NCBI GenBank assembly: GCA_029263125.1
Contig: JAJCYD010000048.1
Span: forward strand, 62,001-126,000
Source: Solirubrobacteraceae bacterium
GTDB taxonomy: Bacteria; Actinomycetota; Thermoleophilia; Solirubrobacterales; Solirubrobacteraceae
DNA: 64,000 nucleotides
Direction: 5' to 3'
Under the pieces are notes generated by a model. It did not search any database. It had not been told where the DNA came from and was given only the letters and a program-made list of their open reading frames with translations. The translations under genes and the position numbers were made by a program. Positions 33,292 to 56,267 of this stretch are shown here, piece after piece; within the stretch, counting starts at the first letter, position 1, and the number at the start of each line of letters is the position of its first letter.

Positions 33292-34908
33292 CTACTCCCA
33301 TTCGATCGTTCCCGGCGGCTTGGAGGTGATGTCCAGCACGACGCGGTTGACATCGCGCAGCTCGTTGATCATCCGCGAGGCGATCTGCTCGAGCAGGTCG
33401 TAGGGCAACCGCGCCCAATCGGCGGTCATCGCGTCGTCTGAGGTGACCGCGCGCAGCACGACGACGCAGCCGTAGGTGCGCTCGTCGCCCTGCACGCCGA
33501 CGGTGCGCACGTCGGGCAGCACGCAGAAGGATTGCCACAGGTCGCGGTACAACCCGGCCTTGCGGATCTCGTCCTGGAAGATGTAGTCGCACTCGCGCAG
33601 CAGGTCCAGGCGCTCCTTGGTCGCTTCGCCGCCGACGATCCGGATCGCCAGGCCAGGTCCGGGGAACGGCTGGCGCCAGACCAGGCGCTCGGGCAGGCCG
33701 AGCTCGGCGCCGACGGCGCGCACCTCGTCCTTGAACAGCGCGCGCAGCGGCTCGACGAGATCGAACTGCAGATCCTCGGGAAGGCCGCCGACGTTGTGGT
33801 GGGACTTGATCGTCGAGGCGCCCGTGCCACCGCCGGACTCGATGACGTCGGAGTACAGCGTGCCCTGGACGAGGTAGTGCGCGTCGCCGATCTTCTCGGC
33901 CTCCTCCTCGAAGACGCGGATGAACTCCGCGCCGATCGCCTTGCGCTTGGCCTCAGGGTCGGTCACCCCGGCCAGCCTGCTCAAAAAGCGCTGCTCGGCG
34001 TCGACGGCGACGAGCGGGACCTTGAAGTGATCGCGGAACGCGGCGACGACCTGCTCGCCCTCGTTCTTTCGCATCAGGCCGTGGTCGACGAAGACGCAGG
34101 TCAGCTGGTCGCCGACCGCGCGGTGGACGAGCAGCGCGGCGACGCTGGAGTCCACGCCGCCCGACAGGCCGCAGATGACCTTGTGAGTACCGACCTGGGC
34201 GCGGATCTTCGCGATCTGCTCGGCGACGATGCTCTCGGGGCTCCAGGTGCGGTCGGCGCCGCAGATGTCGCCGAGGAAGCGTTCGAGGATCGTCTGGCCG
34301 TAGGGGGTGTGGACGACCTCGGGGTGAAACTGGATGCCGTAGATGCCGCGCTCGATGTCTTCCAGCGCGGCAACCGGCGAACCCGTGGACGAGGCCAGGG
34401 CCGTGAAGCCCGGCGGTGGCGCATACACGGTGTCGCGATGGGACATCCAGCACGTCTGGCGCTCGGGCAGGCCGGCGAACAGGCGACCGGGGTCGCGGAC
34501 GGTCAGCTCCGAGCGCCCGAACTCGCCGATCTCCGCGCCCTCGACGCTGCCGCCGAGCTCGGTCGCGATCAGCTGCATCCCGTAGCAGATGCCGAGCACC
34601 GGGATGCCGAGCTCGAGCAGCTCGCGCTCCAGGCGCGGCGCCGCGGGCGCATACACCGACGCCGGGCCGCCGGAGAGGATCAGGCCCTTCGGCTGGCGCT
34701 TGCGCACCTCCTCCACGCCGACGTGGTGGGGCAGCAGCTCGCTGAAGACCCCCAGCTCGCGGACGCGACGCGCGATCAGCTGCGAATACTGACCGCCGTA
34801 GTCGAGCACGACGACCTCGTCGACGCGCCGCGGCGTCTGAACGTCGAGCACGCTCTCGTCGACGAGCTCCGTCGCGGCGGTCGTGGCGGTGACGACGCCT
34901 TCCGCCAT
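33292..34908 (-). CDS. guaA: GMP synthase (glutamine-hydrolysing)
   Basis: Converts XMP to GMP. 538 aa: a non-conserved N-terminal extension (about 1-28), a class I glutaminase domain (GICYGMQ nucleophile; GIQFHPEV), an ATP-pyrophosphatase domain ([12 protein letters not shown]) and the C-terminal dimerisation domain ending KPPGTIEWE. Three nucleotides separate it from guaB3 upstream, so the two are one transcript. Confidence 0.96.
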
Positions 34909-34911
34909 GGG

Positions 34912-36153
34912 TCAGGCGTCCTGGAGCGCCGGATCCTCGTGGATGCCGTTGCCGTTGGAGGGCTTCGGCGCGGAGGTCGCCGATCCGCGTGCGCCCATGC
35001 CGACACCCTGGGCGACCTGAAGCTGCTTGCCCTCGGTCTGCAGCGCGGGCGCGATCATCAGCTCGGCGCGGTTGAACTCCGCGATGTCCTTGTAGCCGCA
35101 GGTCGCCATCGACGTGCGCAGCCCGCCCATGAGGTTGAACGTGCCGTCGTTCTGGTGGGCGGGACCGGTGACGATCTCCTCGAGCGAGCCGTTCTGCACG
35201 GTCCGCACCCGCGCGCCGCGCGGAAGCGTGGAGTGGAAGGTCGCCATGCCCCAGTGGTAGCCGCGACCGGGCGCCTCGTGGGCGCGAGCCAGCGGCGAGC
35301 CGATCATGACGGCGTCCGCGCCACACGCGATCGCCTTGGAGACGTCGCCGCCGTTGCGCATCCCGCCGTCGGCGATGACCTGGCAGTACTCACCCGTCTC
35401 GAGCATGTTCTGCGAGCGAGCGCCCGCGACGTCCGCGATCGCCGTTGCCTGCGGGACGCCGATGCCGAGCACGCCGCGGGTCGTGCAGGCGGCGCCCGGA
35501 CCGACGCCGACGAGCACGCCGGCCGCGCCCGTACGCATCAGGTGCAGGGCGGTGTGGTAGCTCGCGCAGCCACCGACGACGACGGGGAGAGGCACCTCGC
35601 GAATGAACTCCTTGAGGTTCAGCGGGGGACGGTTCTCGTCGTTGGAAACGTGCTCGGCGGAGACGACGGTCCCCTGGATGACGAGGATGTCCAGGCCCGC
35701 CTCAAGCGCCAGCTCGTGGTACTGGCGAACCCGCTGAGGCGTCAGCGAGCAGGCGACGACGACGCCCTGGTCCTTGATCTCGCGGATGCGCTGCGTGATC
35801 AGCTCGGGAATGATCGGCCGCTGGTAGATCTCCTGCATCTCGCGCGTCGCGGAGTCCTTGGGCAGGTGCGAGATGCGCTCGAGCTGCTCCTCGGCGTCCT
35901 CGTAGCGGGTGAAGATCCCCTCGAGATTCAGGACGGCGAGACCGCCGAGCTTGCCGATCAGGCCGGCCGTCGTCGGCGAGACGACCCCGTCCATCGCCGA
36001 GGCCAGCAGCGGCAGCTCGAAGCGGTAGTCGCCGAGCTTCCACGAGATGTCCACGTCGTCGGGGTCCCTGGTGCGTCGTGAGGGCACGATCGCGATGTCG
36101 TCGAATCCGTATGCGCGGCGTGCTTTCTTCCCGCGACCGATCTCAATCTCCAT
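34912..36153 (-). CDS. guaB3: IMP dehydrogenase-family protein GuaB3
   Basis: A 413-aa TIM-barrel enzyme of the IMPDH/GMP reductase superfamily without the CBS domains of GuaB. The barrel core has ASAMDGVVSP, the catalytic cysteine loop GPGAACTTRGVLG, VIADGGMRNGGD and the phosphate-binding region GADAVMIGSPLA. The ~40-residue C-terminal tail is disordered-looking. GuaB3 is common in actinobacteria; its reaction there is, to my knowledge, not settled. TAGGAT ends 6 nt upstream of the ATG. Confidence 0.9.
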   Translation of the reverse strand: MEIEIGRGKKARRAYGFDDIAIVPSRRTRDPDDVDISWKLGDYRFELPLLASAMDGVVSPTTAGLIGKLGGLAVLNLEGIFTRYEDAEEQLERISHLPKDSATREMQEIYQRPIIPELITQRIREIKDQGVVVACSLTPQRVRQYHELALEAGLDILVIQGTVVSAEHVSNDENRPPLNLKEFIREVPLPVVVGGCASYHTALHLMRTGAAGVLVGVGPGAACTTRGVLGIGVPQATAIADVAGARSQNMLETGEYCQVIADGGMRNGGDVSKAIACGADAVMIGSPLARAHEAPGRGYHWGMATFHSTLPRGARVRTVQNGSLEEIVTGPAHQNDGTFNLMGGLRTSMATCGYKDIAEFNRAELMIAPALQTEGKQLQVAQGVGMGARGSATSAPKPSNGNGIHEDPALQDA

Positions 36154-40794: not shown

Positions 40795-41994
40795 TCAGGC
40801 CACGAACTCGATCTCGACCGGTTCGCCGGCGCCGATCGCGTCGCGGTCGCCGGGGACGAGGGCCAGCGCGTCGATGCCGAGCATCGAGGTGAGGATGTGG
40901 GAGTCCTGCGAGCGCGTGGGGCGCACATGCCAGCCGTCGTCCTGCAGCGACGAGCGGCAGCGCACGATCGTCGTGCGCCCGCGCGCGCCGGGAAGCTCCT
41001 CGTCTGCGGTCGCCATCGTCGGATGCACGACGCGCTCGCGGCCGAGCATGGCGTCCAGCGCCGGGACGACGAACAGCCGGAATGCCATCAGCGCCGACAC
41101 GGGGTTTCCGGGCAGGGCGAAGACGAGCGTGCCCTCCTCGTTGATCGCGAAGGTCGTCGGGCGGCCGGGCTTGAGCTTCACGCCCGCGAAGACCTCGCGG
41201 AAGCCGAGGCGCTTCAGCGCGGGGCGCACGTGGTCGTGTGGTCCGACCGACACGCCGCCGGTGGTGATCAGCATGTCGACGTCGCGCAGCGCCGCGCGCA
41301 GCACCGACACCGTCGCCTCGAGGTCGTCGCCGACGCGAACCCGTGCGACCAGATCGCCGCCGGCACGATGCACGGCGCCGCCGAGCGCGGGGCCGTTTGA
41401 ATCGCGGATGCCGCCGGGCGCCAGCGGCTTGCCCGGGTCGGTCAGCTCATCGCCGGTGCCGGCCAGCGCCACGCGCGGGCGGCGCACGACCATCGGGCGC
41501 GGGATGTTCAGCGACGCGAGCACGCCCAGCTCGGATGGGCCGAGCACGGATCCTGCGTGGATGACGAGCGATCCGGCGAGGATGTCCTCGCCGGCGGGAC
41601 GCACGTGCTTGGCGACCGGCACGACCCCGTCGACCACCACGGTCGCGTCCTCGGCCGTCGTCTGCTCCTGGGGCACGATCGCGTCCGCGCCGTCGGGAAC
41701 GGGCGCGCCGGTGGAGATGCGAACGGCCGTGCCGGTCCGGACGGTCACCCCCGCCTCGCTGCCGGCCTTCGCCTCCCCGATGAGCTCCAGGCGCGCGGCT
41801 CCGCTCGCCGTGTCGGCGGCGAGGATCGCGTAGCCGTCCATCGCCGAGGCATCAAACGGCGGGACATGGTTGGGCGCGGCCGCATCCTCGGCGAGCGCGC
41901 GGCCGAGCGCCTCGTCGAGGCCGACCTCCTCGGAGCCGAGCACCGCGGCATGCTCGAGCACCGCGTTGCGCGCCTCGTGGATCGAGACGGCCAC
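40795..41994 (-). CDS. moeA: Molybdopterin molybdenumtransferase
   Basis: Inserts molybdate into adenylylated molybdopterin. 399 aa in MoeA domain order: N-terminal FDASAMDGYAI (domain I/II), central MogA-like domain with TTGGVSVGPHD and FALPGNPVSALMAF, then the C-terminal beta-barrel (domain IV). The gene starts (GTG) immediately after the DUF6457 stop. Molybdenum cofactor is needed by the nitrate reductase at 48951-52496. Confidence 0.94.
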   Translation of the reverse strand: MAVSIHEARNAVLEHAAVLGSEEVGLDEALGRALAEDAAAPNHVPPFDASAMDGYAILAADTASGAARLELIGEAKAGSEAGVTVRTGTAVRISTGAPVPDGADAIVPQEQTTAEDATVVVDGVVPVAKHVRPAGEDILAGSLVIHAGSVLGPSELGVLASLNIPRPMVVRRPRVALAGTGDELTDPGKPLAPGGIRDSNGPALGGAVHRAGGDLVARVRVGDDLEATVSVLRAALRDVDMLITTGGVSVGPHDHVRPALKRLGFREVFAGVKLKPGRPTTFAINEEGTLVFALPGNPVSALMAFRLFVVPALDAMLGRERVVHPTMATADEELPGARGRTTIVRCRSSLQDDGWHVRPTRSQDSHILTSMLGIDALALVPGDRDAIGAGEPVEIEFVA

Positions 41995-42213
41995 CTACTC
42001 GACCCCGGGCGCGACGCGCCGTGCGGCCGCGAGCAGCTCCGCCGCCGGCATGCCGCTCGCGCCGCCGACGAAGCAGGCGATCGGCGCGGCGAAGCGCTCG
42101 GACGCGTGGGCCGCGATCGTGGCGAGCGTCAGCAGGCCGTCGATCTCCTCGGCGCTGGGAACCTCGGCTCCCACCTCGGCGGCGAACGCCGCCAGAAACT
42201 CGTTTGCCGTCAT
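41995..42213 (-). CDS. DUF6457 family small protein
   Basis: A 72-aa protein matching the DUF6457 pattern: helix with EFLAAFAAEVG, LLTLATIAAHASERFAAPIACFVGG and AAELLAAARRVAP. This domain occurs alone or fused to MobA-like proteins in actinobacteria, generally beside molybdenum cofactor genes, as here directly ahead of moeA. Biochemical role unknown. Confidence 0.8.
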   Translation of the reverse strand: MTANEFLAAFAAEVGAEVPSAEEIDGLLTLATIAAHASERFAAPIACFVGGASGMPAAELLAAARRVAPGVE

Positions 42214-42239
42214 GGGGCTGACGGTAGCGGGCGGGGTGC

Positions 42240-43355
42240 TCAGACGCCCAGCAGCGCGTCGATCGTGGCGCTCGCGCGGCCGTCGGACACGGTCTCGCCG
42301 GCCAGCGCCGCTCCGGCGCTGACGCTCGCGCAGCGACCGGCGACGTACAGGCGCAGCCCGGCGCTCAGCAGCGCGGTCTGCGCTGCGACGCCGTGCTCGT
42401 CGCCGGCGGCGATGGCCCGCGTGAGGTCCGCGGCGACTGCCGGATCGCGGTCGCCGCGCAGCAGGGCGCCCGGCGACTCGGGCAGCTCGATCGGTCCCAG
42501 CGAGTCCGATGCCGACGGCCTCCCCGCGCGCATGACGTCCGCTCCCTCCATGCCGCGCACCGTGACGACGCGGTGCGCGCCGAGCAGCGAGAGCGCACCC
42601 TGCAGGCGCTCGCGATAGATGCTGTGTGTGTGGCCGATGACGAAATGCGTCGCGCCGAGATGGTCGACGAGCTTCTCGGCGCTGTGCAGCGGGCCGCGCA
42701 ACCCGATCTCGTCACGCAGCGTCGCCAGGGCGTCCCAGCCTGCAATCGCCGCGCCGGCGTGCACGAGCGCGACGCCGCAGCGGTCGAGCATCGCCCGCGA
42801 CTCGGCGGGCTCGGGCCGGGCCGGGCCTCCCAGAGCGGCGAGGACGTCGGCGGGCGTCGTGCCGTGCTTGGGACCGAGCGTCGCGCCGCAGTGCACGACG
42901 ACGCGGGCGCCGGCGGCGGCCGCCAGCACGGCGGCGGCGAGCGACAGGTGGGGCGCGTCGACCATGCCGTCGTAGGCCCCGGCGCAGGCGATCGTCGGAC
43001 CCCGGTCCGCCGCGGGGCTTTCGGAGACGGTCGACGCCGCGTCGCGCAGCGCCTGCGTCATGCCGGCCAGCTCGGCCGGAGACTCGCCCTTGATGCGCAT
43101 CGCGACGAGGAAGGCGCCGGCCTGCACGGGACTGACGTCCCCGGCCAGTAGCGCGGCCGTCGCCGAGCGAGCCTCCTCGAAGGTCAGCGCGCGGCTGCCG
43201 CGCGGCCCGGTCCCGACCGCCTTGATGACGGCGCGAAAGCCGCCGTAGCCGGTGCGCCCCGCGCGCTGGGAGAGCGTCGGCGCGATGGCGATCGGACCGC
43301 TGCTCCCGCGCGGTGGCTCAGGGTCCTTCGCTTCGATGCCCGCCTGCAGGCTCAT
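42240..43355 (-). CDS. Anthranilate phosphoribosyltransferase-like protein (TrpD2/YbiB-like)
   Basis: A 371-aa nucleoside phosphorylase/phosphoribosyltransferase class II protein. The N-terminal helical domain has SPVQAGAFLVAMRIKGESPAEL. The phosphate-binding CAGAYDG and the catalytic region VVHCG-x5-KHGTTPADVL are TrpD-like, but the canonical GTGGD is replaced by CAGAYDG, as in TrpD2/YbiB-type proteins, which are not tryptophan enzymes. No trp genes are near. It is coupled to the GlnR-like regulator upstream (ATGA), placing it in nitrogen metabolism. Confidence 0.8.
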   Translation of the reverse strand: MSLQAGIEAKDPEPPRGSSGPIAIAPTLSQRAGRTGYGGFRAVIKAVGTGPRGSRALTFEEARSATAALLAGDVSPVQAGAFLVAMRIKGESPAELAGMTQALRDAASTVSESPAADRGPTIACAGAYDGMVDAPHLSLAAAVLAAAAGARVVVHCGATLGPKHGTTPADVLAALGGPARPEPAESRAMLDRCGVALVHAGAAIAGWDALATLRDEIGLRGPLHSAEKLVDHLGATHFVIGHTHSIYRERLQGALSLLGAHRVVTVRGMEGADVMRAGRPSASDSLGPIELPESPGALLRGDRDPAVAADLTRAIAAGDEHGVAAQTALLSAGLRLYVAGRCASVSAGAALAGETVSDGRASATIDALLGV

Positions 43356-44026
43356 GTTCCCTCCCAGCGGTAGCCGACGCTGCGTACGGTCTTGATCCGC
43401 GACGCGTTCTCCGAGCCCAGCTTCGCGCGGACGCGGCGGATGTGGACGTCGACCGTCCGCGCGCCCCCGTAGTAGTCATAGCCCCACACGCGGTTGAGCA
43501 GCGCCTCCCGAGAGAACACGCGCTTGGGGTGGGTGACGAGGAACTTCAGCAGCTCGTACTCCATGTAGGTGAAGTCCACCGGCCGGCCGTCGATGGCGAC
43601 CTGGTAGGTGGCAAGGTTCATCTCCAGCGAGCCGACGCGGACGATGTCGTCGTGGTCGATGCCGTTGACGGCCCGTCGTGCGCGCGCGATCCGCGCCTGC
43701 AGCTCGCCCGCGGAGAAGGGCTCGATGAGCAGCTCGTGGCCCTCGGAGACACCGAGACCCTCGGCCAGCGCGCCCGATGCCATCGCGACGAGCACCGGCA
43801 CCTCGCCGAGATCCTCGTCGGCCGCCAGCCGCGCGCACAGCTCCGCGCAGGACGGCTGCTCCAGCCCGGAGGCGAGGATCACGGCCAGTGCCGGCGCCTT
43901 GCTGTCGCCGTCGGGCGGGCGCAGCGTGCCGTTGGCCGCGACGCGGTGCGGGCTGAAGCCCAGCTCGGCCAGCAGCCGCGACGTGGCATCGCCGCCCTGC
44001 GTGCCGTAGATCCAGGCGTCGCTCAC
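43352..44026 (-). CDS. GlnR-like OmpR-family winged-helix regulator
   Basis: A 224-aa regulator. The C-terminal winged helix (about 125-222) is strongly conserved: FTYMEYELLKFLVTHP, SREALLNRVWGYDYYGGARTVDVHI and TVRSVGYRWEG. The N-terminal receiver-like domain (1-115) lacks an evident phospho-acceptor Asp where it should follow the strand ALAVI. Such atypical receivers are typical of GlnR, the actinobacterial nitrogen regulator. GTG start overlaps the upstream glutamine-synthetase-like gene and its stop overlaps trpD2. Confidence 0.8.
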   Translation of the reverse strand: MSDAWIYGTQGGDATSRLLAELGFSPHRVAANGTLRPPDGDSKAPALAVILASGLEQPSCAELCARLAADEDLGEVPVLVAMASGALAEGLGVSEGHELLIEPFSAGELQARIARARRAVNGIDHDDIVRVGSLEMNLATYQVAIDGRPVDFTYMEYELLKFLVTHPKRVFSREALLNRVWGYDYYGGARTVDVHIRRVRAKLGSENASRIKTVRSVGYRWEGT

Positions 44027-45363
44027 AGCAGTCGCAGGTAGCGGGAACGATCGAACTCGGTCACGGTGCGCCGCTCGGCATCGGTCTCGCGGCGCTTGTT
44101 GGCGACGTAGGCGTCGACGAGCCGGTCGCCGAGCGTCTCGCGAACGAGCTCGGAGGCATCGAAGAGGTCGGTTGCCTCGCGCAGGTCCAGCGGTAGGCGC
44201 GTGCCCGAAGCGGCGTCGTCGACGCTCTCGGCCTGAAGCTCATAGCCGCGCTCGATGCCGCGCAGGCCTGCCGCGAGGACGAGCGACAACACGAGGTAGG
44301 GGTTGCAGGCGGGGTCCGGAGAGCGCAGCTCGAAGCGAGCACCCTCCACGCGCCCCGGCCGGCGCGACGGGACGCGGACGAGCGCCGCAGCGCCGCGGCG
44401 CGTCCAGCTGATGGTCTCCGGCGCCTCGAAACCGGTGGCCAGGCGGCGGTAGGAGTTGATCCACTGGTTCGTGACGGCGGTCAGCTCGCCGGCATGGGCG
44501 AGCACCCCGGCGAGGAAGGCGCGGCCGGTCGGAGAGAGCGCCTCGTCGGGCTCGGCGTCGTGGAAGGCGTTGCGATCACCTTCGAACAGCGAGATGTGCA
44601 TGTGCATGCCCGAGCCGGGATGGTCCTCCAGGGGCTTTGGCATGAACGTCGCGTAGGCACCGAGCTCGTGGGCGGCCTCCTTGACGGCGATCCGGAACGT
44701 CGTGACGGCGTCGGCCATCGACAGCGCGTCGTCGTGGGCGAGCTGGATCTCGTGCTGGGACGGCGCGACCTCGTGGTGGGAGGCCTTGACGGGGATCCCC
44801 ATCTGCTCGAGGTAGTCGATCGTGCGGCGACGAAAGTCCGAGCCGACGTCCAGCGGCGTGAGGTCGAAGTAGGCGCCGTCGTCGAGGGTCACCGGGGCGG
44901 CGCCGTTGGTGCCCAGCGGGCCGAAGATGAAGAACTCGACCTCACAGCCGACCTGCATCGTGTAGCCCAGCGCCCCCGCCTGGTCTAAGACGCGGCCCAG
45001 CGCCGCGCGCGAGTCGCCGCCGAACGGCTCGCCGTCGGGCTGGCGCACGTCGCAGAACATGCGCGCGACGAGCGAGTCCGGGCGCCACGGGAGCACCTGA
45101 AAGGTGCGCGGGTCGGGGTGGGCGATGACGTCGTGCTCGCGCAGCCGCGACGCGCCCTCAAGCGAGGATCCGTCGAGGCCGACGCCCTCGTCCAGCGCGG
45201 ATTCCAGCTCGGAGACGGGGATCGAGACGCTCTTGAGCAGGCCGAGCACGTCGATGAACCACAGGCGGATGAACTTCACGCCGCGCTCCTCGACTGTGCG
45301 CAGCACGAACTGGCGGTGACCGGACACTGCGTCGAAGGTATGGCCATGACGGCGGTCTGTCAT
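44023..45363 (-). CDS. Glutamine synthetase family protein (GSI-alpha-like)
   Basis: A 446-aa member of the glutamine synthetase superfamily, first gene of an operon with a GlnR-like regulator. Conserved segments: GLDGSSLEG, EVEFFIFG, HHEVAPSQHEIQ, HPGSGMHMHIS, FEAPETISW and FELRSPDPACNPYL. The block that reads NRSALVRVP in true enzymes is GAAALVRVP here, so the Arg that contacts the ATP gamma-phosphate (Arg339 in Salmonella numbering) is missing. The adenylylation motif is absent. It may make glutamine or another gamma-glutamyl amide. ATG 45363 is preferred; GTG 45408 is an alternative. Confidence 0.85.
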   Translation of the reverse strand: MTDRRHGHTFDAVSGHRQFVLRTVEERGVKFIRLWFIDVLGLLKSVSIPVSELESALDEGVGLDGSSLEGASRLREHDVIAHPDPRTFQVLPWRPDSLVARMFCDVRQPDGEPFGGDSRAALGRVLDQAGALGYTMQVGCEVEFFIFGPLGTNGAAPVTLDDGAYFDLTPLDVGSDFRRRTIDYLEQMGIPVKASHHEVAPSQHEIQLAHDDALSMADAVTTFRIAVKEAAHELGAYATFMPKPLEDHPGSGMHMHISLFEGDRNAFHDAEPDEALSPTGRAFLAGVLAHAGELTAVTNQWINSYRRLATGFEAPETISWTRRGAAALVRVPSRRPGRVEGARFELRSPDPACNPYLVLSLVLAAGLRGIERGYELQAESVDDAASGTRLPLDLREATDLFDASELVRETLGDRLVDAYVANKRRETDAERRTVTEFDRSRYLRLL

Positions 45364-45416: not shown

Positions 45417-45455
45417 TAACCTGTATTGACCTATTAGCAGGTTATGATCTAGGGT
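45417..45455 (+). promoter_or_regulatory. Divergent control region with inverted repeat and promoter
   Basis: TAACCTG (45417-45423) and CAGGTTA (45438-45444) are perfect 7-bp inverted arms 14 nt apart. TTGACC (45426-45431) and TAGGGT (45450-45455), 18 nt apart, form a promoter on the + strand. The cupin ATG follows 6 nt later. The operator therefore covers the -35 and spacer. A related TAACCTG motif occurs at 48768. Confidence 0.5.
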
Positions 45456-45461
45456 CGCGGC

Positions 45462-45884
45462 ATGAGCTTTCGTGTCCTGCCCGCCGGCGAGGCCCACTGG
45501 CGCCCGTCCAACCAGCTGCGCGTCGAGAACACCGATCTCGCCAAGCAGCTGCGGTCTTCGACGCTGGCCGCGCGGATGTGGCGCCTGGCGCCGGGCCAGG
45601 CCTCAACGAGGCACCGCCACGAGAAGCAGACCGAGCTGTACGTCGTCCTGGAGGGCACCGGCAGGATTCGCGTCGAGGGCGAGCTGCTGACGCTGGACCG
45701 GCTGTCGAGCATCCTCGTCGAGCCGCAGGCCGTCCGCCAGGTGTTCAACGACACCGATGCCGACGTGCTGTGGCTCGTCGTCGGCACGCCGCCCGAGCTC
45801 GCCAACACCTTGGAGATGACGCCCGAGCAGCTGGCATGGGGCTACCCCGACGGCCCGCTCGCGCTGCCGCCCGAGCTGGCTTGA
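45462..45884 (+). CDS. Cupin-domain protein
   Basis: A 140-aa single-domain cupin. Motif 1 appears as RHRHEKQTELYVVLEGTG (metal-binding His/His/Glu) and motif 2 around ILVEPQAVRQVFND, where the usual His is replaced by Arg-Gln. It is probably cytoplasmic; the bound ligand is unknown. The DUF2332 gene starts within its stop codon (TTGA), so they are co-translated. Confidence 0.8.
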   Translation: MSFRVLPAGEAHWRPSNQLRVENTDLAKQLRSSTLAARMWRLAPGQASTRHRHEKQTELYVVLEGTGRIRVEGELLTLDRLSSILVEPQAVRQVFNDTDADVLWLVVGTPPELANTLEMTPEQLAWGYPDGPLALPPELA

Positions 45885-48768: not shown

Positions 48769-48800
48769 AACCTGATTGTCGCGAACAAGCCGGTTACCTG
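48768..48800 (-). promoter_or_regulatory. TAACCTG motif region at the CGNR gene start
   Basis: TAACCTG (48768-48774) overlaps the start codon, with GGTTA (48792-48796) as an inverted partner and TTACCTG (48794-48800) as a direct near-copy. The similarity to 45417-45444 suggests one regulator, perhaps CGNR itself. Confidence 0.35.
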
Positions 48801-48950
48801 TCGCGGCACCGAGACGTCGATCAGCGTCTGCACACGGAGTCCTACGACAGCTGCGGTCGGGCGGTTCAGGTCCTGGCGCGCTCGGGCCGGCGGCCGTTCA
48901 CACAGCGTTCATCGATCCGACGCGGCAGGGAAACTGCCGATCCGCACCCT

Positions 48951-51900
48951 GTGGCGCAGATGCAGAGCACCCCGACCCAGTGTCCGTACTGCGGCGTCGG
49001 TTGCGGCCTCCTGGCCGACGTGCAGGACGGGCGGCTCATCAGCGTCCGCGGCGACCGCCACCATCCCGTCAACCGCGGCCGCACCTGCCGCAAACCGCTC
49101 GGGCTGCCGTTCGCCGTCGAGGCTCCCGACCGCGCCACCGTGCCATTGTGGCGCTCCGATCGCGACGCTCGCTTCGAGCCGACCGGCTGGGAGGACGTGC
49201 TCGCAACGGTCGCCGGGCGCATGCGGGCGATCGTCGGGGAGCATGGCCCTGACGCCGTCGCGTTCTACATCTCCGGACAGCTGCTGACCGAGGACTACTA
49301 CGCGATCAACAAGCTCGCCAAGGGCTTTCTCGGCACGAACAACGTCGACTCAAACTCGCGCTTGTGCATGTCCTCAGCCGTCGCCGGCTACAGCGGCGCG
49401 TTCGGCTTCGACGGCCCGCCGCCTGCCTACGCGGACATCGCGCTGTCGGACTGCTTCCTGCTGCTCGGCACGAACACGGCGGCATGCCATCCGATCGTCT
49501 GGTCGCGCATCCGCGACCGTCAGGCCGAGGGCGCCTTCGTCATCTGCGCCGACCCGCGCGCGACGAAGACCGCGCAGGGTTCTGACCTGCACCTGCCGGT
49601 GCGCCCCGGCACCGACCTCGCGCTGCTCAGCGCGATGCTGCATGTCGTCGACCGCGACGGATTGCTCGACGAGGACTTCATCACTCGCCACACCGGAGGT
49701 TGGGGCGAGGCACGGGCGGTCGCCCAGCAATGGACGCCCGCCCGTGCCCAGGGGGTCTGCGGCGTCGACGCCACGCTCATCGAACAGGCGGCACATCGGT
49801 TCGCCGGCGCGGGCGCCGCGATGGCGCTGTGGTCGATGGGCGCCAACCAGTCGACCGTCGGGACGCTGAAGAACCGTGCGCTGATCAACCTCTGCCTCGC
49901 GACCGGCCAGATCGGCCGGCCGGGCTCGGGACCGCTGTCGCTCACCGGCCAGCCCAACGCGATGGGGGGCCGCGAGACGGGCGGCCTCTCGCACCTGCTG
50001 CCCGGCTACCGCAAGGTGGTCGACGCCGAGGACCGCGCCGCGATGGCCGCCCACTGGGGCGTCGACGTCGAGGCGCTGTCGGCCACACCGGGGCTCCCCG
50101 CCGTCGCGCTCTTCGACGCGCTCGAGGAGGGCCGGGTCAAGGCCGTCTGGATCATGGCCACCAACCCGCTCGTCTCGCTGCCCGACGGCCAGCGAGCTCG
50201 CGCGGCGTTGGAACGCGCGGAGCTCGTCGTCGTGCAGGACCCCCACCACCCGACCGAGACCTCGTCGCTGGCGCATGCCGTGCTGCCCGCCGCCGCATGG
50301 CCCGAGAAGGAGGGCGCGATGACGAACTCCGAGCGCCGCGTCGGGCTCGTGCGACGCGTCGTCGCGCCGCCTGGAGAAGCCCGTGCGGACTGGGAGATCG
50401 TCGCGGGACTCGCGCGCCACCTCGGCCATGGAGACGCCTTCGCATGGCCGGACGCCGCCGCGGTCTTCGACGAGTTCGCCGCCTGCACCGCCGGACGCCC
50501 GTGCGATCTCAGCGGCGTCTCGCACGAGCGCCTGCGCCGAGAGGGCGGGGTGCAGTGGCCATGCCCGGCGCAGCCCGTCGACGAGCATCCCGGCACGCCG
50601 CGCCTGTACGCCGACAAGCGCTTCCCCACCCCCGACGGCCGCGCGCGCTTCGCCCCCACCCCCCACGTCGACCCGGCCGAGACGCCCGACCCAGACTTCC
50701 CGATCCTGCTGACGACCGGCCGCGTCGCCGACCAGTGGCACACGATGACGCGCACCGGACACTCCCCCGCGCTGCTCGCGGCGGCGGGCCTCCCGACCGT
50801 GTCGGTGCATCCCCGCGATGCCGAGGCGGCGGGCTTGCAGGACGGTGGGCAGGCGCGTATCGCGTCGCGCCGTGGGACGGCGCGGTTTGCGGTCAGCTTC
50901 GACGACACGCTGCCCAACGGCGTCGCGTTCGCGCCGTTTCACTGGGGCGCCCTGCATGCCGACGCCGGCGCGGGCACGCTCAACGCGCTGACGATCAGCA
51001 CCGTCGACGAGACCTCCGCGCAGCCCGAGCTCAAGGCCGTCGCGGTGCGCCTGCAGCCGGTGCGCAAGCGCGACGAGCCGGTGTCGAGGCGCGCTCCGCC
51101 CAAGCCCCGCCGGCTGGTCGTGGTGGGAACCGGCATGTCGGGCCTGGCGGTCGTCGAGGAAGCGCTGCGCCGGCGGCCCGCCGAGCACTGGAAGATCGTC
51201 ATGCTCGGCGAGGAGCCGGGCCCCACCTACAACCGGGTGCTGCTGTCCAAGCTGCTGGCCAACAGCGCCGGTCCGGGCGAGCTCGAGCTGAGACCGCTGT
51301 CGTGGTACGCCAGGCACCGAGTCGACCTGCGCGGAGGGTGCAGCGCCTCATCGCTGGATCTCCAGCAGCGCAGCGTGCTCGACGAATCGGGTGGCAGCCA
51401 CCCATACGACGCACTGGTCATCGCCACGGGATCGCGCGCGTTCGTCCCGCCGATCCCGGGTGCAGACCTACCGCACGTCGACGTCTTCCGCACGTGGCGC
51501 GACGCCGACGCGCTCGCCGCCACGCCGGCCGGCGCGCGCGCGGTCGTCGTCGGCGGCGGCCTGCTCGGCCTGGAGGCGGCGGCCGGCCTGCACGCCCGCG
51601 GCGTCGGCGTGACCGTCGTCGAGCTCGCCGGCCACCTCATGAACATGCAGCTCGACCACGGAGCGGCGGCGATCCTGCGGCGCGATCTCGAGCGCCAGGG
51701 CATCGCGTGCCTGCTGGGCCGCAGCGCATCGCGCATCCAAGCCGACCGCGTCGTGCTCGACGACGCCAGCGAGCTCGCGTGCGAGCGCGTGGTCGTCGCC
51801 GCGGGGGTGCGCGCCGAGACGACGCTGGCCCGTGCCGCGGGCCTGCAATGCGAGCGCGGGATCGTCGTCGATGACGAACTGCGGGCCAGCGCCCCCGGCG

Positions 51901-52496
51901 TGTGGGCGGTCGGCGAATGTGCCGAGCATCGCGGCACCGTCTACGGCCTGTGGGCGCCCCTTGCCGAGCAGGCGCGCGTCGCGGGCGCCCAGATCGCGGG
52001 CGACCCCGGGGTCTTCCACGGCGCGGTGCAGGCGACGACGCTGAAGGTCTCGGGCGTTGACGTCTACGCCGGCGGCGGCTCGGCGGGCGCGGCGCCCGAC
52101 GGTCACGACGAGATCGTCTTCAGCGACACGCGCAACGGCATCTACCGGCGGCTCGTCCTCGACGGCGACCGCCTGACCGGCGGCGTGCTCGTCGGGGACG
52201 CCAGCGCGGCGCGGCGGCTGACCGAGCTGCTGCGCTCGAATTCCGACGTGCCCGCGGACATCCGCGCGGCCGGCGGCGGCGCCCCGCCGCAGCCGCTCGC
52301 CGCCGACCCCACGGCGACACTGTGCTCATGCAACGCGGTCACCGTCGGCGAGGTTCAGGCGGCGATCCGCCGCGATGGACTGCGAAGCGTCGCCCAGGTC
52401 GGAGCGCGTACGCGCGCCGCCACCGGCTGCGGCGGATGCACAAGCGACGTGGAGGAACTGCTGGCGGCCGTGGCCGCGGTCGCCGACGTGTCCTGA
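48951..52496 (+). CDS. Assimilatory nitrate reductase fused to FAD/NAD(P)H reductase and BFD [2Fe-2S] domain
   Basis: A 1181-aa multidomain enzyme. Residues 1 to about 710: molybdopterin nitrate reductase of the NasA type, with the N-terminal [4Fe-4S] cysteines (Cys11, Cys14, Cys18, Cys46), RLCMSSAVAGY (Mo-ligand Cys) and the C-terminal molydopterin-binding domain (LLTTGRVADQWHTMTRTG). About 720-1110: FAD/NAD(P)-binding NirB/NasB-like reductase (VVVGTGMSG; VVVGGGLLGLEAA; VWAVGECAEH). About 1120-1170: BFD-like [2Fe-2S] domain (CSC; CGGC). It could take electrons directly from NAD(P)H. GTG 48951 is used; ATG 48960 is equally possible. Confidence 0.92.
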   Translation: MAQMQSTPTQCPYCGVGCGLLADVQDGRLISVRGDRHHPVNRGRTCRKPLGLPFAVEAPDRATVPLWRSDRDARFEPTGWEDVLATVAGRMRAIVGEHGPDAVAFYISGQLLTEDYYAINKLAKGFLGTNNVDSNSRLCMSSAVAGYSGAFGFDGPPPAYADIALSDCFLLLGTNTAACHPIVWSRIRDRQAEGAFVICADPRATKTAQGSDLHLPVRPGTDLALLSAMLHVVDRDGLLDEDFITRHTGGWGEARAVAQQWTPARAQGVCGVDATLIEQAAHRFAGAGAAMALWSMGANQSTVGTLKNRALINLCLATGQIGRPGSGPLSLTGQPNAMGGRETGGLSHLLPGYRKVVDAEDRAAMAAHWGVDVEALSATPGLPAVALFDALEEGRVKAVWIMATNPLVSLPDGQRARAALERAELVVVQDPHHPTETSSLAHAVLPAAAWPEKEGAMTNSERRVGLVRRVVAPPGEARADWEIVAGLARHLGHGDAFAWPDAAAVFDEFAACTAGRPCDLSGVSHERLRREGGVQWPCPAQPVDEHPGTPRLYADKRFPTPDGRARFAPTPHVDPAETPDPDFPILLTTGRVADQWHTMTRTGHSPALLAAAGLPTVSVHPRDAEAAGLQDGGQARIASRRGTARFAVSFDDTLPNGVAFAPFHWGALHADAGAGTLNALTISTVDETSAQPELKAVAVRLQPVRKRDEPVSRRAPPKPRRLVVVGTGMSGLAVVEEALRRRPAEHWKIVMLGEEPGPTYNRVLLSKLLANSAGPGELELRPLSWYARHRVDLRGGCSASSLDLQQRSVLDESGGSHPYDALVIATGSRAFVPPIPGADLPHVDVFRTWRDADALAATPAGARAVVVGGGLLGLEAAAGLHARGVGVTVVELAGHLMNMQLDHGAAAILRRDLERQGIACLLGRSASRIQADRVVLDDASELACERVVVAAGVRAETTLARAAGLQCERGIVVDDELRASAPGVWAVGECAEHRGTVYGLWAPLAEQARVAGAQIAGDPGVFHGAVQATTLKVSGVDVYAGGGSAGAAPDGHDEIVFSDTRNGIYRRLVLDGDRLTGGVLVGDASAARRLTELLRSNSDVPADIRAAGGGAPPQPLAADPTATLCSCNAVTVGEVQAAIRRDGLRSVAQVGARTRAATGCGGCTSDVEELLAAVAAVADVS

Positions 52497-52514
52497 TCTG
52501 TGGACAGGTCGACC

Positions 52515-52545
52515 GGCCGGCGCCCCGCGTCGCAGGGCGCCGGCC
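52515..52545. terminator. Bidirectional GC-rich hairpin between convergent genes
   Basis: GGCCGGCGCCC (52515-52525) and GGGCGCCGGCC (52535-52545) form a perfect 11-bp stem with a 9-nt loop. It lies between the stops of the nitrate reductase fusion and the convergent secreted-protein gene, with no T-run. Confidence 0.7.
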
Positions 52546-52550
52546 ATCCG

Positions 52551-53363
52551 TCAGAGGGAGCGCCGGACGCCCGTCCGGCATTTCTTGGCACGGCTGGTGT
52601 GCAGGTTGTCCAGGAACACCGCGGAGTCATAGATCCGGTCGCCCTGGTCGAAGATCGACAGGTAGAGCCGGCGGAGACCCGGCTTGACCCTGGTCGACGC
52701 CCGCAGCTTGCGGGTGGCGCCGTCGTAGGTGGTTCCCTTCGCGTGGCGGGCGCGAACGGTCGTATCGCCGACCTTGTTGACGCGAATGGGATGGCCCTTG
52801 CTGTCACGAGCGAAGTTGAGGGGGGCCGTGATCGTGGGGTCCTCCTTGGTGCCCGCGTTCCAGTTGGAGCCATCCAGCTCGGCGATGAACGCGTCGTTGA
52901 ACTCCTCGTCGACGAACTCCGGGAACTCCTCGGAGAGAAAGCGAAAGTCAAAGCTCAGGCAGTTGTCGCCGGTCGGCACGCGCAGGTCGATCCGCATGAT
53001 CACGACGTCGCGCGCACCGCGAATCGACGGACCGCGCGATTCGGTACCGGTGTCGGGCGCGTTGTTGGGGTCGTCTGCCCGGCGTGCGTTGCCGGTGGAG
53101 AGGATGCCGAACGAGCCACCCCTGGTCGGAAAGCCCGCCAGGCGCGTGGTCGACGCAGCCGCCGGCTTGGAGCTCGGCGGCAGGGCCGAGAACACGGCGC
53201 GCCTCACGAGGCCCGGCTGGCTGGCCATGGCCCGCGCGACCGGTGTCGCCGACGGATCTCGGGGATACTCGACGATCTTCGCCTGCCCGCTTGACGCCGC
53301 GATCACCGACGCCAACGCTACGGTGGTCACTGCTGGCACTGCACAACGGATTCGGACGGACAT
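52551..53363 (-). CDS. Secreted choice-of-anchor L domain protein
   Basis: A 270-aa exported protein. ATG 53363 gives a signal peptide (basic SVRIR, Ala/Val core, cleavage near SSGQAK). The mature part matches the choice-of-anchor L pattern: LSFDFRFLSEEFPEFV, NDAFIAELDGS, TAPLNFARDSKG and a C-terminal VKPGLRRLYLSIFDQGD-YDSAVFLDN. These are extracellular beta-sandwich domains of unknown ligand. It has no visible C-terminal sorting signal. It separates the nitrate and nitrite reductase genes and seems unrelated to them. Confidence 0.78.
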   Translation of the reverse strand: MSVRIRCAVPAVTTVALASVIAASSGQAKIVEYPRDPSATPVARAMASQPGLVRRAVFSALPPSSKPAAASTTRLAGFPTRGGSFGILSTGNARRADDPNNAPDTGTESRGPSIRGARDVVIMRIDLRVPTGDNCLSFDFRFLSEEFPEFVDEEFNDAFIAELDGSNWNAGTKEDPTITAPLNFARDSKGHPIRVNKVGDTTVRARHAKGTTYDGATRKLRASTRVKPGLRRLYLSIFDQGDRIYDSAVFLDNLHTSRAKKCRTGVRRSL

Positions 53364-53474
53364 CTGAGCCTTTCGGAGAGAGAGAAGCGAGCGCGCGACG
53401 GTACTCCGCGAGCCGGCCGCACGCTCCGGTAATGCCGCGCCCCGTGCACGCCGCCTGCCCGGCCAGCAGGTCCG

Positions 53475-53512
53475 TTCATCACCTGGAAACACCACCAACA
53501 CCGCGAGGAAAC
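53475..53512 (+). promoter_or_regulatory. GlnR-box-like array upstream of nirB
   Basis: Two GAAAC pentamers (53486-53490 and 53508-53512) are exactly 22 nt apart. The pentamers 11 nt before each (TTCAT, AACAC) keep part of the gTnAc a-site. This is the a-n6-b-n6-a-n6-b spacing of actinobacterial GlnR boxes. It ends 23 nt before the nirB ATG. Confidence 0.5.
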
Positions 53513-53535
53513 GGCCACCCGCCACCATCGTCGCC

Positions 53536-55953
53536 ATGAGCGAATCCGTGGTGATCGTCGGCGGTGGCATAGCCGGGCAAGCCGTCTGCGAAGCGCTGCG
53601 CGAACGCGATCCGGATGCGGCGATCACGCTCGTCTGCGGCGAAGTCAGCGCACCGTATGACCGCGTGCGGCTGTCGGAGATCCTGGTCTCCGGCGAGGAC
53701 CCCGAGACGCTTCAACTGCGTCCCGGCGAGTGGTACGCCGACCACGACGTGGAGCTGCTGCTCGGCCGCTGGGTGACCTCGGTCGACACCGACGACGGCC
53801 GCCTGGAGCTCGACGACGGCGCCGAGCTGACGTTCGACAAGCTCGTGCTCGCCACCGGCTCGCAGGCGCTGATGCCGCCGATCGCGGGCATCGACCTTCC
53901 CGGCGTGCATCCGTTCCGCGGTCCGCAGGACTGCGAGGCGATTCGCGCGGCCGCCGCCGGTGGCGCACAGCACGCCGCGGTCATCGGTGGCGGGCTGCTC
54001 GGCCTCGAGGCCGCGCGCGGGATTGCCGCTCAGGGCTGCGCGGTCACGGTCATCCACCTGCTCGACCGGCTGATGGAACGCCAGCTCGACGCCGGCGCGG
54101 CGTCGTTGCTCGCGCCCGCGCTCGCCGAGCTGGACATCGCGATCGAGTTCGACCGCAACACGACCGCGATCATCGGCCCCGAGCACGCGACCGGGCTGCA
54201 CTTCAAGGGCGGCGACCGGCTCGGCGCCGACCTCGTCGTCGTGTCGGTCGGCATCCGCCCCGAGGTCAAGCTGGCGCGCGCGATCGGCGTCGAATGCGAT
54301 CGCGGCATCGTCGTCGACGACGCGATGCGCACGAGCATCCCCGGCGTGCTGGCCGTCGGCGAGTGCGCGCAGCACCGCGGCCTCGTCTACGGGCTCGTCG
54401 CGCCGATCCACGACCAGGCGCGCGTCGCGGCCGCGACGCTCGTCGACGTCGAGGCCGCCTACCTCGGGTCGGTGCCCAGCGCCAAGCTCAAGGTCGCCGG
54501 CATCGATCTCGTCTGCGCCGGCGAGGCGGAGGGTGACCAGGAGGCCGTCGTCACCGATGGCGCCGCCGGCATCTACCGCAAGCTCGCGACGCGAAACGGT
54601 CGCGTCGTCGGCGCGATCCTGCTCGGCAACACCCGCGGATCGGAGGCGCTCGTCGCCGCGGTGCGCTCCGGCGAGCCGATCGACGACCCGCTGCAGGCGC
54701 TCGCCGACGCGTCGCTCGCCGGCCCCGCCGACCTGCCGGACACCGCGCAGATCTGCGATTGCAACGGCGTCTGCAAGGGCGACCTGATGGCGGCGGTCAC
54801 CGAGGGCGGCTGCTCCACGCCGCGCGAGGTCATGGCGGTCACCCGCGCGGGCACCGGCTGCGGCTCCTGCCGCCCGGCCGTCATCGAGATCGTCGCCGCC
54901 GCGGCCGGCGGGCTCTCCGACGAGCCGACCTATCTGTGCCCATGTCGCAAGCAGACGCGCGAACAGCTCGCCGGGCGCATCCGCGACGACGGGCTTGAGT
55001 CCGTCAGCGACGTCGCCAACGCGTGCGGCACCGGGCGCGAGTGCGGGGTCTGCAAGCCGGCGCTCGCCTACCTCGTCTCCGAGGTCAAGGCCAACCGCCA
55101 CCAGGAGGAGCGCGACGCGCGCTTCATCAACGATCGCGTCCACGCGAACATCCAGAAGGACGGGACGTTCTCCGTCGTCCCGCGGATGTACGGCGGCGTG
55201 ACGACGCCCGACGAGCTACGCCGGATCGCCGACGTCGCCGACAAGTACCACGTGCCGCTCGTGAAGGTCACAGGTGGCCAGCGCCTGGACCTCCTCGGGG
55301 TTCGCAAGCAGGATCTCCCCGCGATCTGGGCCGACCTCGGGATGCCGTCGGGACACGCATATGCCAAGGCTGTGCGGACGGTGAAGACCTGCGTCGGGAC
55401 CGAGTTCTGCCGCTTTGGCCTCGGCGACGCGATCGGCCTGGGCATCGAGATGGAGAAGGCCTGGGAAGGCCTGCATACGCCGCATAAGGTCAAGTCCGGC
55501 GTCAGCGGCTGCCCGCGCAACTGTGCCGAGGCGACGATCAAGGACATCGGCCTCGTGGCCGTCGAGGGCGGCTGGCAGGTGCGCGCCGGCGGCGCCGCCG
55601 GCGGCAACGTGCGCGAGGCCGACATCCTGGCGACCGTCGAGACCCGCGCCGAGGCCCTGCGCGTCGCAACGACGTTCCTGCAGTACTACCGCGAGAACGC
55701 CGACTACAAGGAGCGCACCTACGACTTCATCCCGCGCATCGGGCTTCAGAAGATCCGCGAGATCGTGCTCGACGAGAAGATCGGAGCGCAGCTGCGCGAG
55801 CGCCTGCAGATCGCCAAGGCCGCGACCAAGGACCCGTGGCTGGAGCGCGACGATCCCTACCACCCGCGCCAATTCTCAGACCTCGACCCGCCCGAGACGG
55901 CCGACACCGCCGAGCCCCACCTCGTCGGACCACCCGCTGGAGGTGAGCGATGA
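53536..55953 (+). CDS. nirB: Nitrite reductase (NADH) large subunit
   Basis: Reduces nitrite to ammonia in the cytoplasm. 805 aa: FAD-binding (VIVGGGIAGQAVCEAL) and NAD-binding (VIGGGLLGLEAARGIA) Rossmann domains, then two BFD-like [2Fe-2S] cysteine sets (CDCNGVC...CGSC; CPC...CGVC, the second more divergent), a ferredoxin-like half-domain and the sirohaem/[4Fe-4S] site TCVGTEFCRFG...SGCPRNCAEA. Overlaps nirD by 4 nt. A GlnR-box-like array lies just upstream. Sirohaem synthesis and nitrite/nitrate transport genes are not in the window. Confidence 0.96.
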   Translation: MSESVVIVGGGIAGQAVCEALRERDPDAAITLVCGEVSAPYDRVRLSEILVSGEDPETLQLRPGEWYADHDVELLLGRWVTSVDTDDGRLELDDGAELTFDKLVLATGSQALMPPIAGIDLPGVHPFRGPQDCEAIRAAAAGGAQHAAVIGGGLLGLEAARGIAAQGCAVTVIHLLDRLMERQLDAGAASLLAPALAELDIAIEFDRNTTAIIGPEHATGLHFKGGDRLGADLVVVSVGIRPEVKLARAIGVECDRGIVVDDAMRTSIPGVLAVGECAQHRGLVYGLVAPIHDQARVAAATLVDVEAAYLGSVPSAKLKVAGIDLVCAGEAEGDQEAVVTDGAAGIYRKLATRNGRVVGAILLGNTRGSEALVAAVRSGEPIDDPLQALADASLAGPADLPDTAQICDCNGVCKGDLMAAVTEGGCSTPREVMAVTRAGTGCGSCRPAVIEIVAAAAGGLSDEPTYLCPCRKQTREQLAGRIRDDGLESVSDVANACGTGRECGVCKPALAYLVSEVKANRHQEERDARFINDRVHANIQKDGTFSVVPRMYGGVTTPDELRRIADVADKYHVPLVKVTGGQRLDLLGVRKQDLPAIWADLGMPSGHAYAKAVRTVKTCVGTEFCRFGLGDAIGLGIEMEKAWEGLHTPHKVKSGVSGCPRNCAEATIKDIGLVAVEGGWQVRAGGAAGGNVREADILATVETRAEALRVATTFLQYYRENADYKERTYDFIPRIGLQKIREIVLDEKIGAQLRERLQIAKAATKDPWLERDDPYHPRQFSDLDPPETADTAEPHLVGPPAGGER

Positions 55954-56267
55954 CCTACGCCTGCCGCATCGACGACGTGCCACTCGGCGAAGGACGAGTC
56001 GTGACCCTCGACGGCCAGCGCATCGCCGTCTTCCGCGCGGCCGGCGGCTGGTACGCGCTGGACGCCGCCTGCCCGCACATGGGCGGACCGCTGGCCGACG
56101 GGATCGTGTGCGACCGCGCGGTCATCTGCCCACTGCACGACCGCCGCTATGACCTGCAGACCGGCGAGCCGCTCGGCGCCGGCGACCCGGTGGCAGTGCA
56201 TGCCGTCGAGGTGCGCGGCGACCAGGTCTTCGTGCGGGTCAGCACGCGCGAGGCTGTCGCCGCCTGA
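55950..56267 (+). CDS. nirD: Nitrite reductase (NADH) small subunit, Rieske-type
   Basis: A 105-aa Rieske-fold subunit that assists NirB. It has the [2Fe-2S] ligands CPHMGG (about residues 41-46) and CPLHDRRYD (about 60-68). The ATG overlaps the nirB stop (ATGA), so the two are made in equal amounts. It ends 3 nt before the convergent antiporter gene. Confidence 0.95.
   Translation: MTYACRIDDVPLGEGRVVTLDGQRIAVFRAAGGWYALDAACPHMGGPLADGIVCDRAVICPLHDRRYDLQTGEPLGAGDPVAVHAVEVRGDQVFVRVSTREAVAA

What the first reader, a model, noticed from the sequence alone, without database searches (positions are those of the whole stretch)
40795..45363. Five-gene operon joins a glutamine-synthetase-like protein, a GlnR-like regulator, TrpD2, DUF6457 and MoeA
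The first three genes overlap by 4 nt, and the others follow with gaps of 26 and 0 nt. The order ties nitrogen sensing to molybdenum-cofactor synthesis beside a nitrate reductase locus. TrpD2-like and DUF6457 proteins have no clear function, so this context is a lead: a nitrate-assimilation or Moco-related role.
Basis: partly seen in the sequence, partly recalled or inferred. Interest (0 to 1): 0.55.

Follow-up and report, generated by a model that had tools for sequence, protein, structure and literature searches.

The report
Enzyme-like partner beside nitrate-control regulator
A soil bacterium's nitrate-use genes sit beside a three-gene control unit that pairs an altered copy of a nitrogen enzyme with a gene switch; the same enzyme-switch pair recurs across a whole bacterial phylum, in one family with the enzyme's active site gone, so the "enzyme" may really be a nitrogen sensor.

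Summary
The five genes are real and placed as described. The five-gene order is not the conserved unit: MoeA follows only in the window's close kin, and DUF6457 placement varies. The conserved unit is three genes: a glutamine synthetase (GS)-like protein, a GlnR-family orphan regulator (RR) and a CnaT/TrpD2-like protein. All 15 genomes (of 201 of the order) with the third gene have all three; in 13 of 15 they lie divergently within about 4 kb of a nitrate reductase gene, NasC. The GS-RR pair alone is older: it sits beside nas genes without CnaT, and in 62 of 87 examined RR places elsewhere in the phylum. The GS groups with GlnA2, not housekeeping GlnA, and lost the substrate residue Asn264. 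In one family (12 of 12) it lost metal ligands but stays paired. A tandem site, GTTCAY-N5-GTTCAY, precedes nasC in 14 of 19 linked loci and 0 of 15 comparison promoters, and occurs exactly once in the own genome. Best reading: a GS-derived nitrogen sensor controlling a GlnR-family activator of nitrate assimilation. Polyamine-ligase and PHO-box readings remain open.

The parts
44023..45363 (-). GS-like protein, GlnA2-type (446 aa); Salmonella-numbered N264 -> P249, R339 -> A325; metal ligands kept
   Evidence: (below TIGR00653 cut-off)
43352..44026 (-). GlnR-family orphan regulator: receiver-like N-terminal domain without the phospho-acceptor Asp, OmpR-type winged helix
42240..43355 (-). CnaT/TrpD2-like protein (TrpD fold, PRPP motifs altered)
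41995..42213 (-). DUF6457 protein, Moco-associated
40795..41994 (-). MoeA, molybdopterin molybdotransferase; follows CnaT only in the window's close kin
48896..48912 (+). GTTCAY-N5-GTTCAY tandem site upstream of nasC; only match in the window at up to 1 mismatch and the only exact match in the own genome
53474..53490 (+). weaker related site GTTCATCACCTGGAAAC upstream of nirB
   Evidence: seen by eye, no statistic
48951..52496 (+). nitrate reductase-type molybdopterin oxidoreductase fused to a NirB-type flavoprotein half; assimilatory role inferred from context
53536..55953 (+). NirB, nitrite reductase large subunit
   Evidence: over TIGR02374 cut-off
55950..56267 (+). NirD-like Rieske protein
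   Evidence: just below TIGR02378 cut-off

Best explanation
This is a control module for nitrate assimilation. (1, inferred) The GS-like protein is a GlnA2-type synthetase recruited as a nitrogen-status sensor: it binds glutamate/glutamine or ATP without being the cell's main GS, and its ligand state sets whether the co-encoded regulator can act. (2, shown by sequence and fold prediction) The regulator is a GlnR-family orphan OmpR-type protein with a receiver-like domain lacking the phospho-acceptor Asp, so a kinase is unlikely to drive it; protein contact or a ligand is the likely input. (3, inferred from position and association) It binds a GTTCAY-N5-GTTCAY tandem site upstream of nasC and switches on nasC-nirB-nirD. 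(4, inferred) The CnaT-like protein, with a TrpD fold and altered PRPP motifs, is an accessory positive factor, as CnaT is for the cyanobacterial nir operon. (5, inferred) DUF6457 and MoeA supply molybdenum cofactor and are add-ons. Shown: gene order, conservation, nas linkage, altered residues, the DNA site. Not shown: any binding, sensing or transcription.
For: GS-RR-CnaT kept in 15 of 15 CnaT genomes, 13 of 15 divergent to NasC within about 4 kb. GS-RR without CnaT also divergent to NasC in 6 further genomes. Nas loci with the order NirB-NirD-NasC mostly lack the pair (G119 is an exception). RR vs NasC: 24 of 25 against 20 of 176, Fisher p=5e-18, not corrected for kinship. A NarK-type transporter follows RR or CnaT in relatives. 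GS directly upstream of RR in 62 of 87 RR places examined outside the order, 18 families. In family f42 the paired GS lost the E212, E220 and H269 equivalents in 12 of 12. Window GS below the TIGR00653 cut-off (382 vs 429), own housekeeping GlnA above it (525). The B. subtilis R62 equivalent is Arg in 16 of 16 paired GS of the order and in 0 of 12 housekeeping GlnA. RR: nearest solved sequences and top fold hit are GlnR; recognition helix almost identical to that of Streptomyces-type GlnR. Site in 14 of 19 linked vs 0 of 15 comparison promoters. In M. smegmatis, glnR upregulation bypasses glnA2 essentiality (PMC6142876, abstract and passages).
Against: In the window's order the metal-ligand positions of the GS are kept, so it may still be an enzyme. 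S. coelicolor GlnA2, which shares the N264-to-Pro change, is a gamma-glutamylpolyamine synthetase in vitro (PMC8998196, passages). Six of 64 paired GS outside the order keep N264. In Streptomyces-like genomes GlnR stands alone (10 of 10 examined), so an adjacent GS is not universal. G160 has GS-RR but no NasC. The nasC site resembles a PHO box and is absent or diverged in 5 of 19 linked loci.
Confidence: 0.48

Rival explanations
1. The GS-like protein is a metabolic enzyme, not a sensor: a gamma-glutamyl ligase for polyamines or another amine, as reported for Streptomyces GlnA2, co-transcribed with a nitrogen regulator only because both serve nitrogen limitation.
For: Same clade as actinomycete GlnA2; S. 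coelicolor GlnA2 makes gamma-glutamylpolyamines and cannot replace GS (PMC8998196); metal ligands, D50 and Y179 positions kept in the order.
Against: In f42 the paired GS lost the E212, E220 and H269 equivalents in 12 of 12 yet keeps its place; no polyamine genes were seen among the proteins scanned near the window pair; NCBIfam GGputSyn scores below GlnA.
Confidence: 0.3
2. The nasC tandem site is a PHO box bound by a PhoP/RegX3-type regulator; nitrate genes here answer to phosphate, and the neighbouring RR controls something else.
For: Other exact matches in these genomes precede alkaline phosphatase, PhoX, polyphosphate kinase, a phosphate-binding-type protein and phosphoesterases.
Against: The site is missing from 15 of 15 comparison promoters. 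nas sites carry their own signature: AGCG at spacer end and next base in 11 of 13 vs 0 of 38 other sites, second half GTTCAT in 11 of 13 vs 6 of 38; relatedness of the nas sites is not corrected for.
Confidence: 0.15
3. One reading: one operon coupling nitrogen sensing to molybdenum-cofactor synthesis, with TrpD2 and DUF6457 in a Moco role.
For: MoeA and DUF6457 are co-directional and tightly spaced in the window; DUF6457 neighbours include Moco or molybdate genes.
Against: MoeA follows only in the window's close kin; TrpD2 always follows the regulator, and not MoeA in the other loci.
Confidence: 0.05

Closest known systems
Bacillus/Listeria/Staphylococcus GS-GlnR circuit (glnRA operon, MerR-family GlnR)
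   Same: GS and its regulator share an operon; the regulator senses nitrogen through GS (PMC9249791, abstract and passages); the Arg62 equivalent is kept in the order's paired GS
   Different: Here the regulator is an OmpR/GlnR-type protein, not MerR-family; GS comes first; the GS is a GlnA2-type second copy; no physical interaction is known
Actinomycete GlnR (OmpR-type orphan nitrogen regulator)
   Same: Winged helix and recognition helix; receiver-like N-terminus; nitrate genes as targets
   Different: Phospho-acceptor Asp position lost; co-encoded with a GS. The signal of actinomycete GlnR is itself unknown (PMC10704036, passages)
Actinomycete GlnA2
   Same: Same clade in the tree; N264 position is Pro in S. 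coelicolor too
   Different: Next to a GlnR-type gene and nas genes instead of glnE; R339 also lost in 14 of the 15 aligned orthologues
Cyanobacterial CnaT (all0601), needed for nir operon expression
   Same: Encoded beside nitrate assimilation genes; nearest NCBIfam model PRK07394 is strong in Synechococcus elongatus
   Different: Scores 154 against a cut-off of 287; no cyanobacterial sequence could be fetched for a tree; that PRK07394 is CnaT is recalled, not tested
Anthranilate phosphoribosyltransferase TrpD and TrpD2/YbiB
   Same: Fold (TM 0.76 and 0.86 to 1v8g)
   Different: GTGGD, KHGN and DE motifs altered; own invariant motifs

Membership tests
GlnR (actinomycete OmpR-type) | OmpR-type winged helix closest to GlnR among known structures | tested here: met
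   phmmer best three hits 8hig, 8hih, 8hml; Foldseek top hit 8hih GlnR; 52% identity to 8hig
GlnR (actinomycete OmpR-type) | Recognition helix RTVDVHVRRLRAKLG | tested here: met
   RTVDVHIRRVRAKLG in the window, conservative changes only; GlnR-only loci L141, L142
GlnR (actinomycete OmpR-type) | Conserved Asp at the phospho-acceptor position (D50) | tested here: not met
   VILVDGRRDL in L141/L142 vs LAVILASG in the window; so it is called GlnR-family, not GlnR
GlnR (actinomycete OmpR-type) | Binds GlnR box and controls nitrogen genes | tested here: inconclusive
   11-bp tandem site at nasC; strict GTnAC-N6-GnAAC not found
GlnA2 | Falls with actinomycete GlnA2 apart from housekeeping GlnA | tested here: met
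   99/98 clade of 56 rows; L218, L220, L233 taken as GlnA2 because glnE lies within 10 kb
GlnA2 | N264 position not Asn | tested here: met
   P249 in the window; Asn264 to Pro238 in S. coelicolor
GlnA2 | gamma-glutamylpolyamine synthetase activity | not testable with these tools
   needs enzyme assay
Type I glutamate-ammonia ligase (TIGR00653) | Score over curated cut-off 429 | tested here: not met
   381.7; own housekeeping GlnA 525
CnaT (cyanobacterial) | Over cut-off of nearest model NF005635/PRK07394 | tested here: not met
   154 vs 287 bits
CnaT (cyanobacterial) | Encoded beside nitrate assimilation genes | tested here: met
   13 of 15 within about 4 kb of NasC
CnaT (cyanobacterial) | Needed for nas/nir transcription | not testable with these tools
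   needs deletion strain
TrpD | PRPP motifs GTGGD, KHGN and DE (motifs recalled) | tested here: not met
   GAYDG, VHCG and EGAD in their place
Bacillus-type glnRA circuit | MerR-family GlnR | tested here: not met
   regulator is Trans_reg_C, OmpR type
Bacillus-type glnRA circuit | GS and regulator interact directly | not testable with these tools
   no complex prediction or binding assay
MoeA | MoeA_N, MoCF_biosynth and MoeA_C domains | tested here: met

The most novel reading that the evidence does not exclude
Across Actinomycetota outside the classical actinomycetes, OmpR-type GlnR works with its own dedicated GS-derived sensor (GlnA2-type, in one family a true pseudoenzyme), a GS-regulator circuit that arose independently of the Bacillus MerR-type GlnR circuit; in Solirubrobacterales it has been specialised for nitrate genes and joined by a CnaT-like factor. 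GlnA2 would then be part of the long-missing input of GlnR in Mycobacterium and Streptomyces.
Probability: 0.33. Interest if true: 0.87.

Novelty: new variant of a known kind. Interest (0 to 1): 0.67.

Why it matters
A 2023 review says the nitrogen signal and any kinase for actinomycete GlnR are unknown (PMC10704036, passages). A phylum-wide GS-GlnR-type gene pair, with a GS that lost catalytic residues in at least one family, names a concrete candidate for that input and offers a reason for the glnA2-glnR genetic link in M. smegmatis. It also puts a CnaT-like protein beside nitrate genes outside cyanobacteria, and gives a defined DNA site to test.

Tried and rejected
One conserved five-gene operon: rejected, since MoeA and DUF6457 are not kept in relatives. 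Strict GlnR box GTnAC-N6-GnAAC in the divergent promoters: 0 found; looser TnAC-N9-AC was 10 against 3.7 expected. TrpD2-like protein as true TrpD: rejected on motifs. One search used a wrong Pfam accession (PF20056 for PF20058) and is not evidence. Paper searches: the CnaT paper is not held; a search for GlnR with 8HIH found nothing; a search for GlnR or GS in deep actinobacterial lineages listed only ecology and taxonomy papers. The listings of searches showed no report of an OmpR-type GS-GlnR pair; the library is partial, so this is not proof of absence from print.

Rows dropped before counts: in the tree the long-window duplicates L185-L192, L194, L195, L217, L219, L221-L223 and fragments under 400 aa; L066 and L067 were left out of alignment A1 because their CnaT copies are cut by contig ends. 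The NasC count uses a threshold of 700 bits that I chose after seeing the list, plus G043, whose gene is split.
Full report
Observation. Pfam confirms Gln-synt N and C domains, Trans_reg_C, Glycos_trans_3 with its N domain, DUF6457 and the three MoeA domains. The nitrate locus is at 48951-56267: a molybdopterin oxidoreductase fused to a NirB-type flavoprotein half, then NirB and NirD. NCBIfam places the fusion protein near formate dehydrogenase and NasA/NasC models, all below cut-off, so its assimilatory role rests on context.

What is conserved. Searching 201 genomes of the order with the TrpD2-like protein gave 14 genomes over 230 bits, one more (G088) with a contig-cut copy at 65% identity, and then TrpD-like matches below 95 bits. 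I fetched the 14 neighbourhoods outside the window. All 15 loci have GS-RR-CnaT in that order. The RR/CnaT 4-nt overlap recurs in 11 of the 13 loci with a complete CnaT gene, and the GS/RR 4-nt overlap in 7 of 15, with starts chosen by script. In 13 of 15 NasC is on the opposite strand within about 4 kb; in G030 it is 16 kb off and in G088 the contig ends. MoeA follows CnaT only in the window and its close kin (L054-L056, and L075; L055 has another ORF between). DUF6457 is in the window, L058, L059, L063 and L067.

GS-RR is the older core. Six further genomes (L091, L092, L103, L104, L105, L110) have GS-RR, no CnaT, and divergent NasC. In the place of CnaT the four I scanned carry an MFS gene; the two of them put to NCBIfam, and two such genes behind CnaT, resemble NarK/NarU. 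NasC loci with the order NirB-NirD-NasC lack GS-RR nearby; G119 (L102) is an exception, with GS-RR some 5 kb away. A profile of RR found 25 of 201 genomes in the order. With NasC counted at 700 bits or more, plus the split gene of G043, NasC is in 24 of 25 RR genomes and 20 of 176 others; the test takes no account of kinship.

Across the phylum. RR matched 248 of 396 sampled genomes at E 1e-35. I examined 87 RR places outside the order, chosen from the listed matches and not at random (27 loci, 40, 20): GS directly upstream on the same strand in 62, RR before GS in 2, a divergent GS nearby in 3, none of these in 20. The 62 lie in 18 families of the tool's unnamed numbering. RR of 150-166 bits in L141-L150, several of them large Streptomyces-like genomes, stood without a GS (10 of 10).

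The GS is not housekeeping GlnA. A maximum-likelihood tree of 85 GS proteins puts most paired GS, the window's included, with the actinomycete-type L218, L220, L233 in one clade of 56 rows (99/98), apart from the order's housekeeping GlnA. Those three have a glnE gene within 10 kb, which marks them as GlnA2 (the glnE-glnA2 neighbourhood of M. tuberculosis is recalled). A further paired clade of 12 rows, from f28, f42 and f48, branches just outside. The position of Salmonella N264 is never Asn in 16 paired GS of the order and always Asn in 12 housekeeping copies; outside the order 6 of 64 paired copies keep Asn. R339 is lost in the window and most of its kin. The B. subtilis R62 position is Arg in 16 of 16 paired and 0 of 12 housekeeping copies of the order. 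Residue numbers of Salmonella and Bacillus GS are recalled and mapped by motif.

A pseudo-GS in one family. In f42 all 12 paired GS examined (L171, L177, L276-L285) replace E212 by Ser or Ala, E220 by Gly and H269 by Phe or Met, with open frames and the regulator still downstream. This is the strongest sign that the pair can do without catalysis. It lies outside the window's order, where the metal ligands are kept.

The regulator. The nearest solved sequences are GlnR chains 8hig, 8hih and 8hml. A model from the 15-row alignment (pLDDT 84.5) has a receiver-like alpha/beta half and a winged helix; the top fold hit is M. tuberculosis GlnR, though whole-chain TM-scores are near 0.4, as expected if the two domains are oriented differently. 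The phospho-acceptor Asp present in GlnR-only loci is absent, and the recognition helix is nearly the same.

The DNA site. Upstream of NasC, 14 of 19 GS-RR-linked loci carry GTTCAY-N5-GTTCAY exactly; L091 and L104 have GTAAC-N6-TTCAC and three loci of one genus are diverged. None of 15 comparison promoters has it; the best, 10 of 12 positions, is in L102, which does have GS-RR. The comparison set was mostly nas loci lacking the pair but included L102 and the distant nas locus of G030. In the own genome the exact site occurs once, at nasC. Against a simple reading: other exact sites in these genomes lie before phosphate genes, so the half-site is shared with PHO boxes. The nas sites differ in spacer and second half, without correction for kinship.

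CnaT-like protein. The best NCBIfam model is PRK07394, 154 bits against a cut-off of 287, also best for the two orthologues L061 and L065; among 14 control genomes only Synechococcus elongatus passes 1e-75. CnaT is cited as a positive regulatory element of nirA operon expression (PMC9430850, passages). The model has the TrpD fold, and the PRPP motifs are changed but replaced by other invariant ones, which argues for a new role and not decay.

DUF6457. One neighbour protein at each of 10 of 20 DUF6457 loci was scanned: MoaD-MoaE, MoaA, a MobA-like NTP transferase and a MOT1 molybdate transporter are clear Moco or molybdate links, a TOBE-type ABC ATPase is a probable one, and five are not. This supports a Moco link for DUF6457.

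Mechanism and literature. In Firmicutes, feedback-inhibited GS binds MerR-type GlnR in its active-site cavity (PMC9249791, abstract and passages). In M. smegmatis, deletion of glnA2 became possible with raised glnR expression (PMC6142876, abstract and passages). S. coelicolor GlnA2 has no GS activity and glutamylates polyamines, and GlnR binds its promoter (PMC8998196, passages). The GlnR signal is unknown (PMC10704036, passages). I therefore favour a GS-derived partner or sensor for the regulator, with the enzyme reading as the main rival.

Noticed in passing
window 45417-45444: Perfect inverted repeat TAACCTG-N14-CAGGTTA just upstream of a cupin gene (45462-45884); a second TAACCTG at 48768 with GGTTACCTG at 48792 lies upstream of a CGNR/ABATE regulator gene, so both may share an unknown regulator.
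   Followed up: partly
window 33292-36153; L054, L063: GuaB3-like and GuaA genes lie near the nitrate module in the window, and near the CnaT locus in relatives, suggesting wider conserved gene order.
   Followed up: no
window 48951-52496: Nitrate reductase-type catalytic subunit fused at its C-terminus to the flavoprotein half of NirB plus a BFD-type domain, 1181 aa, kept in many genomes of the order.
   Followed up: partly
L077: Public record titled Bifidobacterium breve MAG carries a Solirubrobacterales-type locus; probably mislabelled.
   Followed up: no
L171, L177, L276-L285: Paired GS without metal-ligand residues in family f42: an intact-frame pseudo-GS kept beside a GlnR-type regulator.
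   Followed up: partly
L185, L186, L188, L191, L163, L166: A second, more distant GS gene lies near the GS-RR pair in several families.
   Followed up: no
L181 (G160): GS-RR followed by an MFS gene in a genome with no NasC: the pair may serve another nitrogen source.
   Followed up: no
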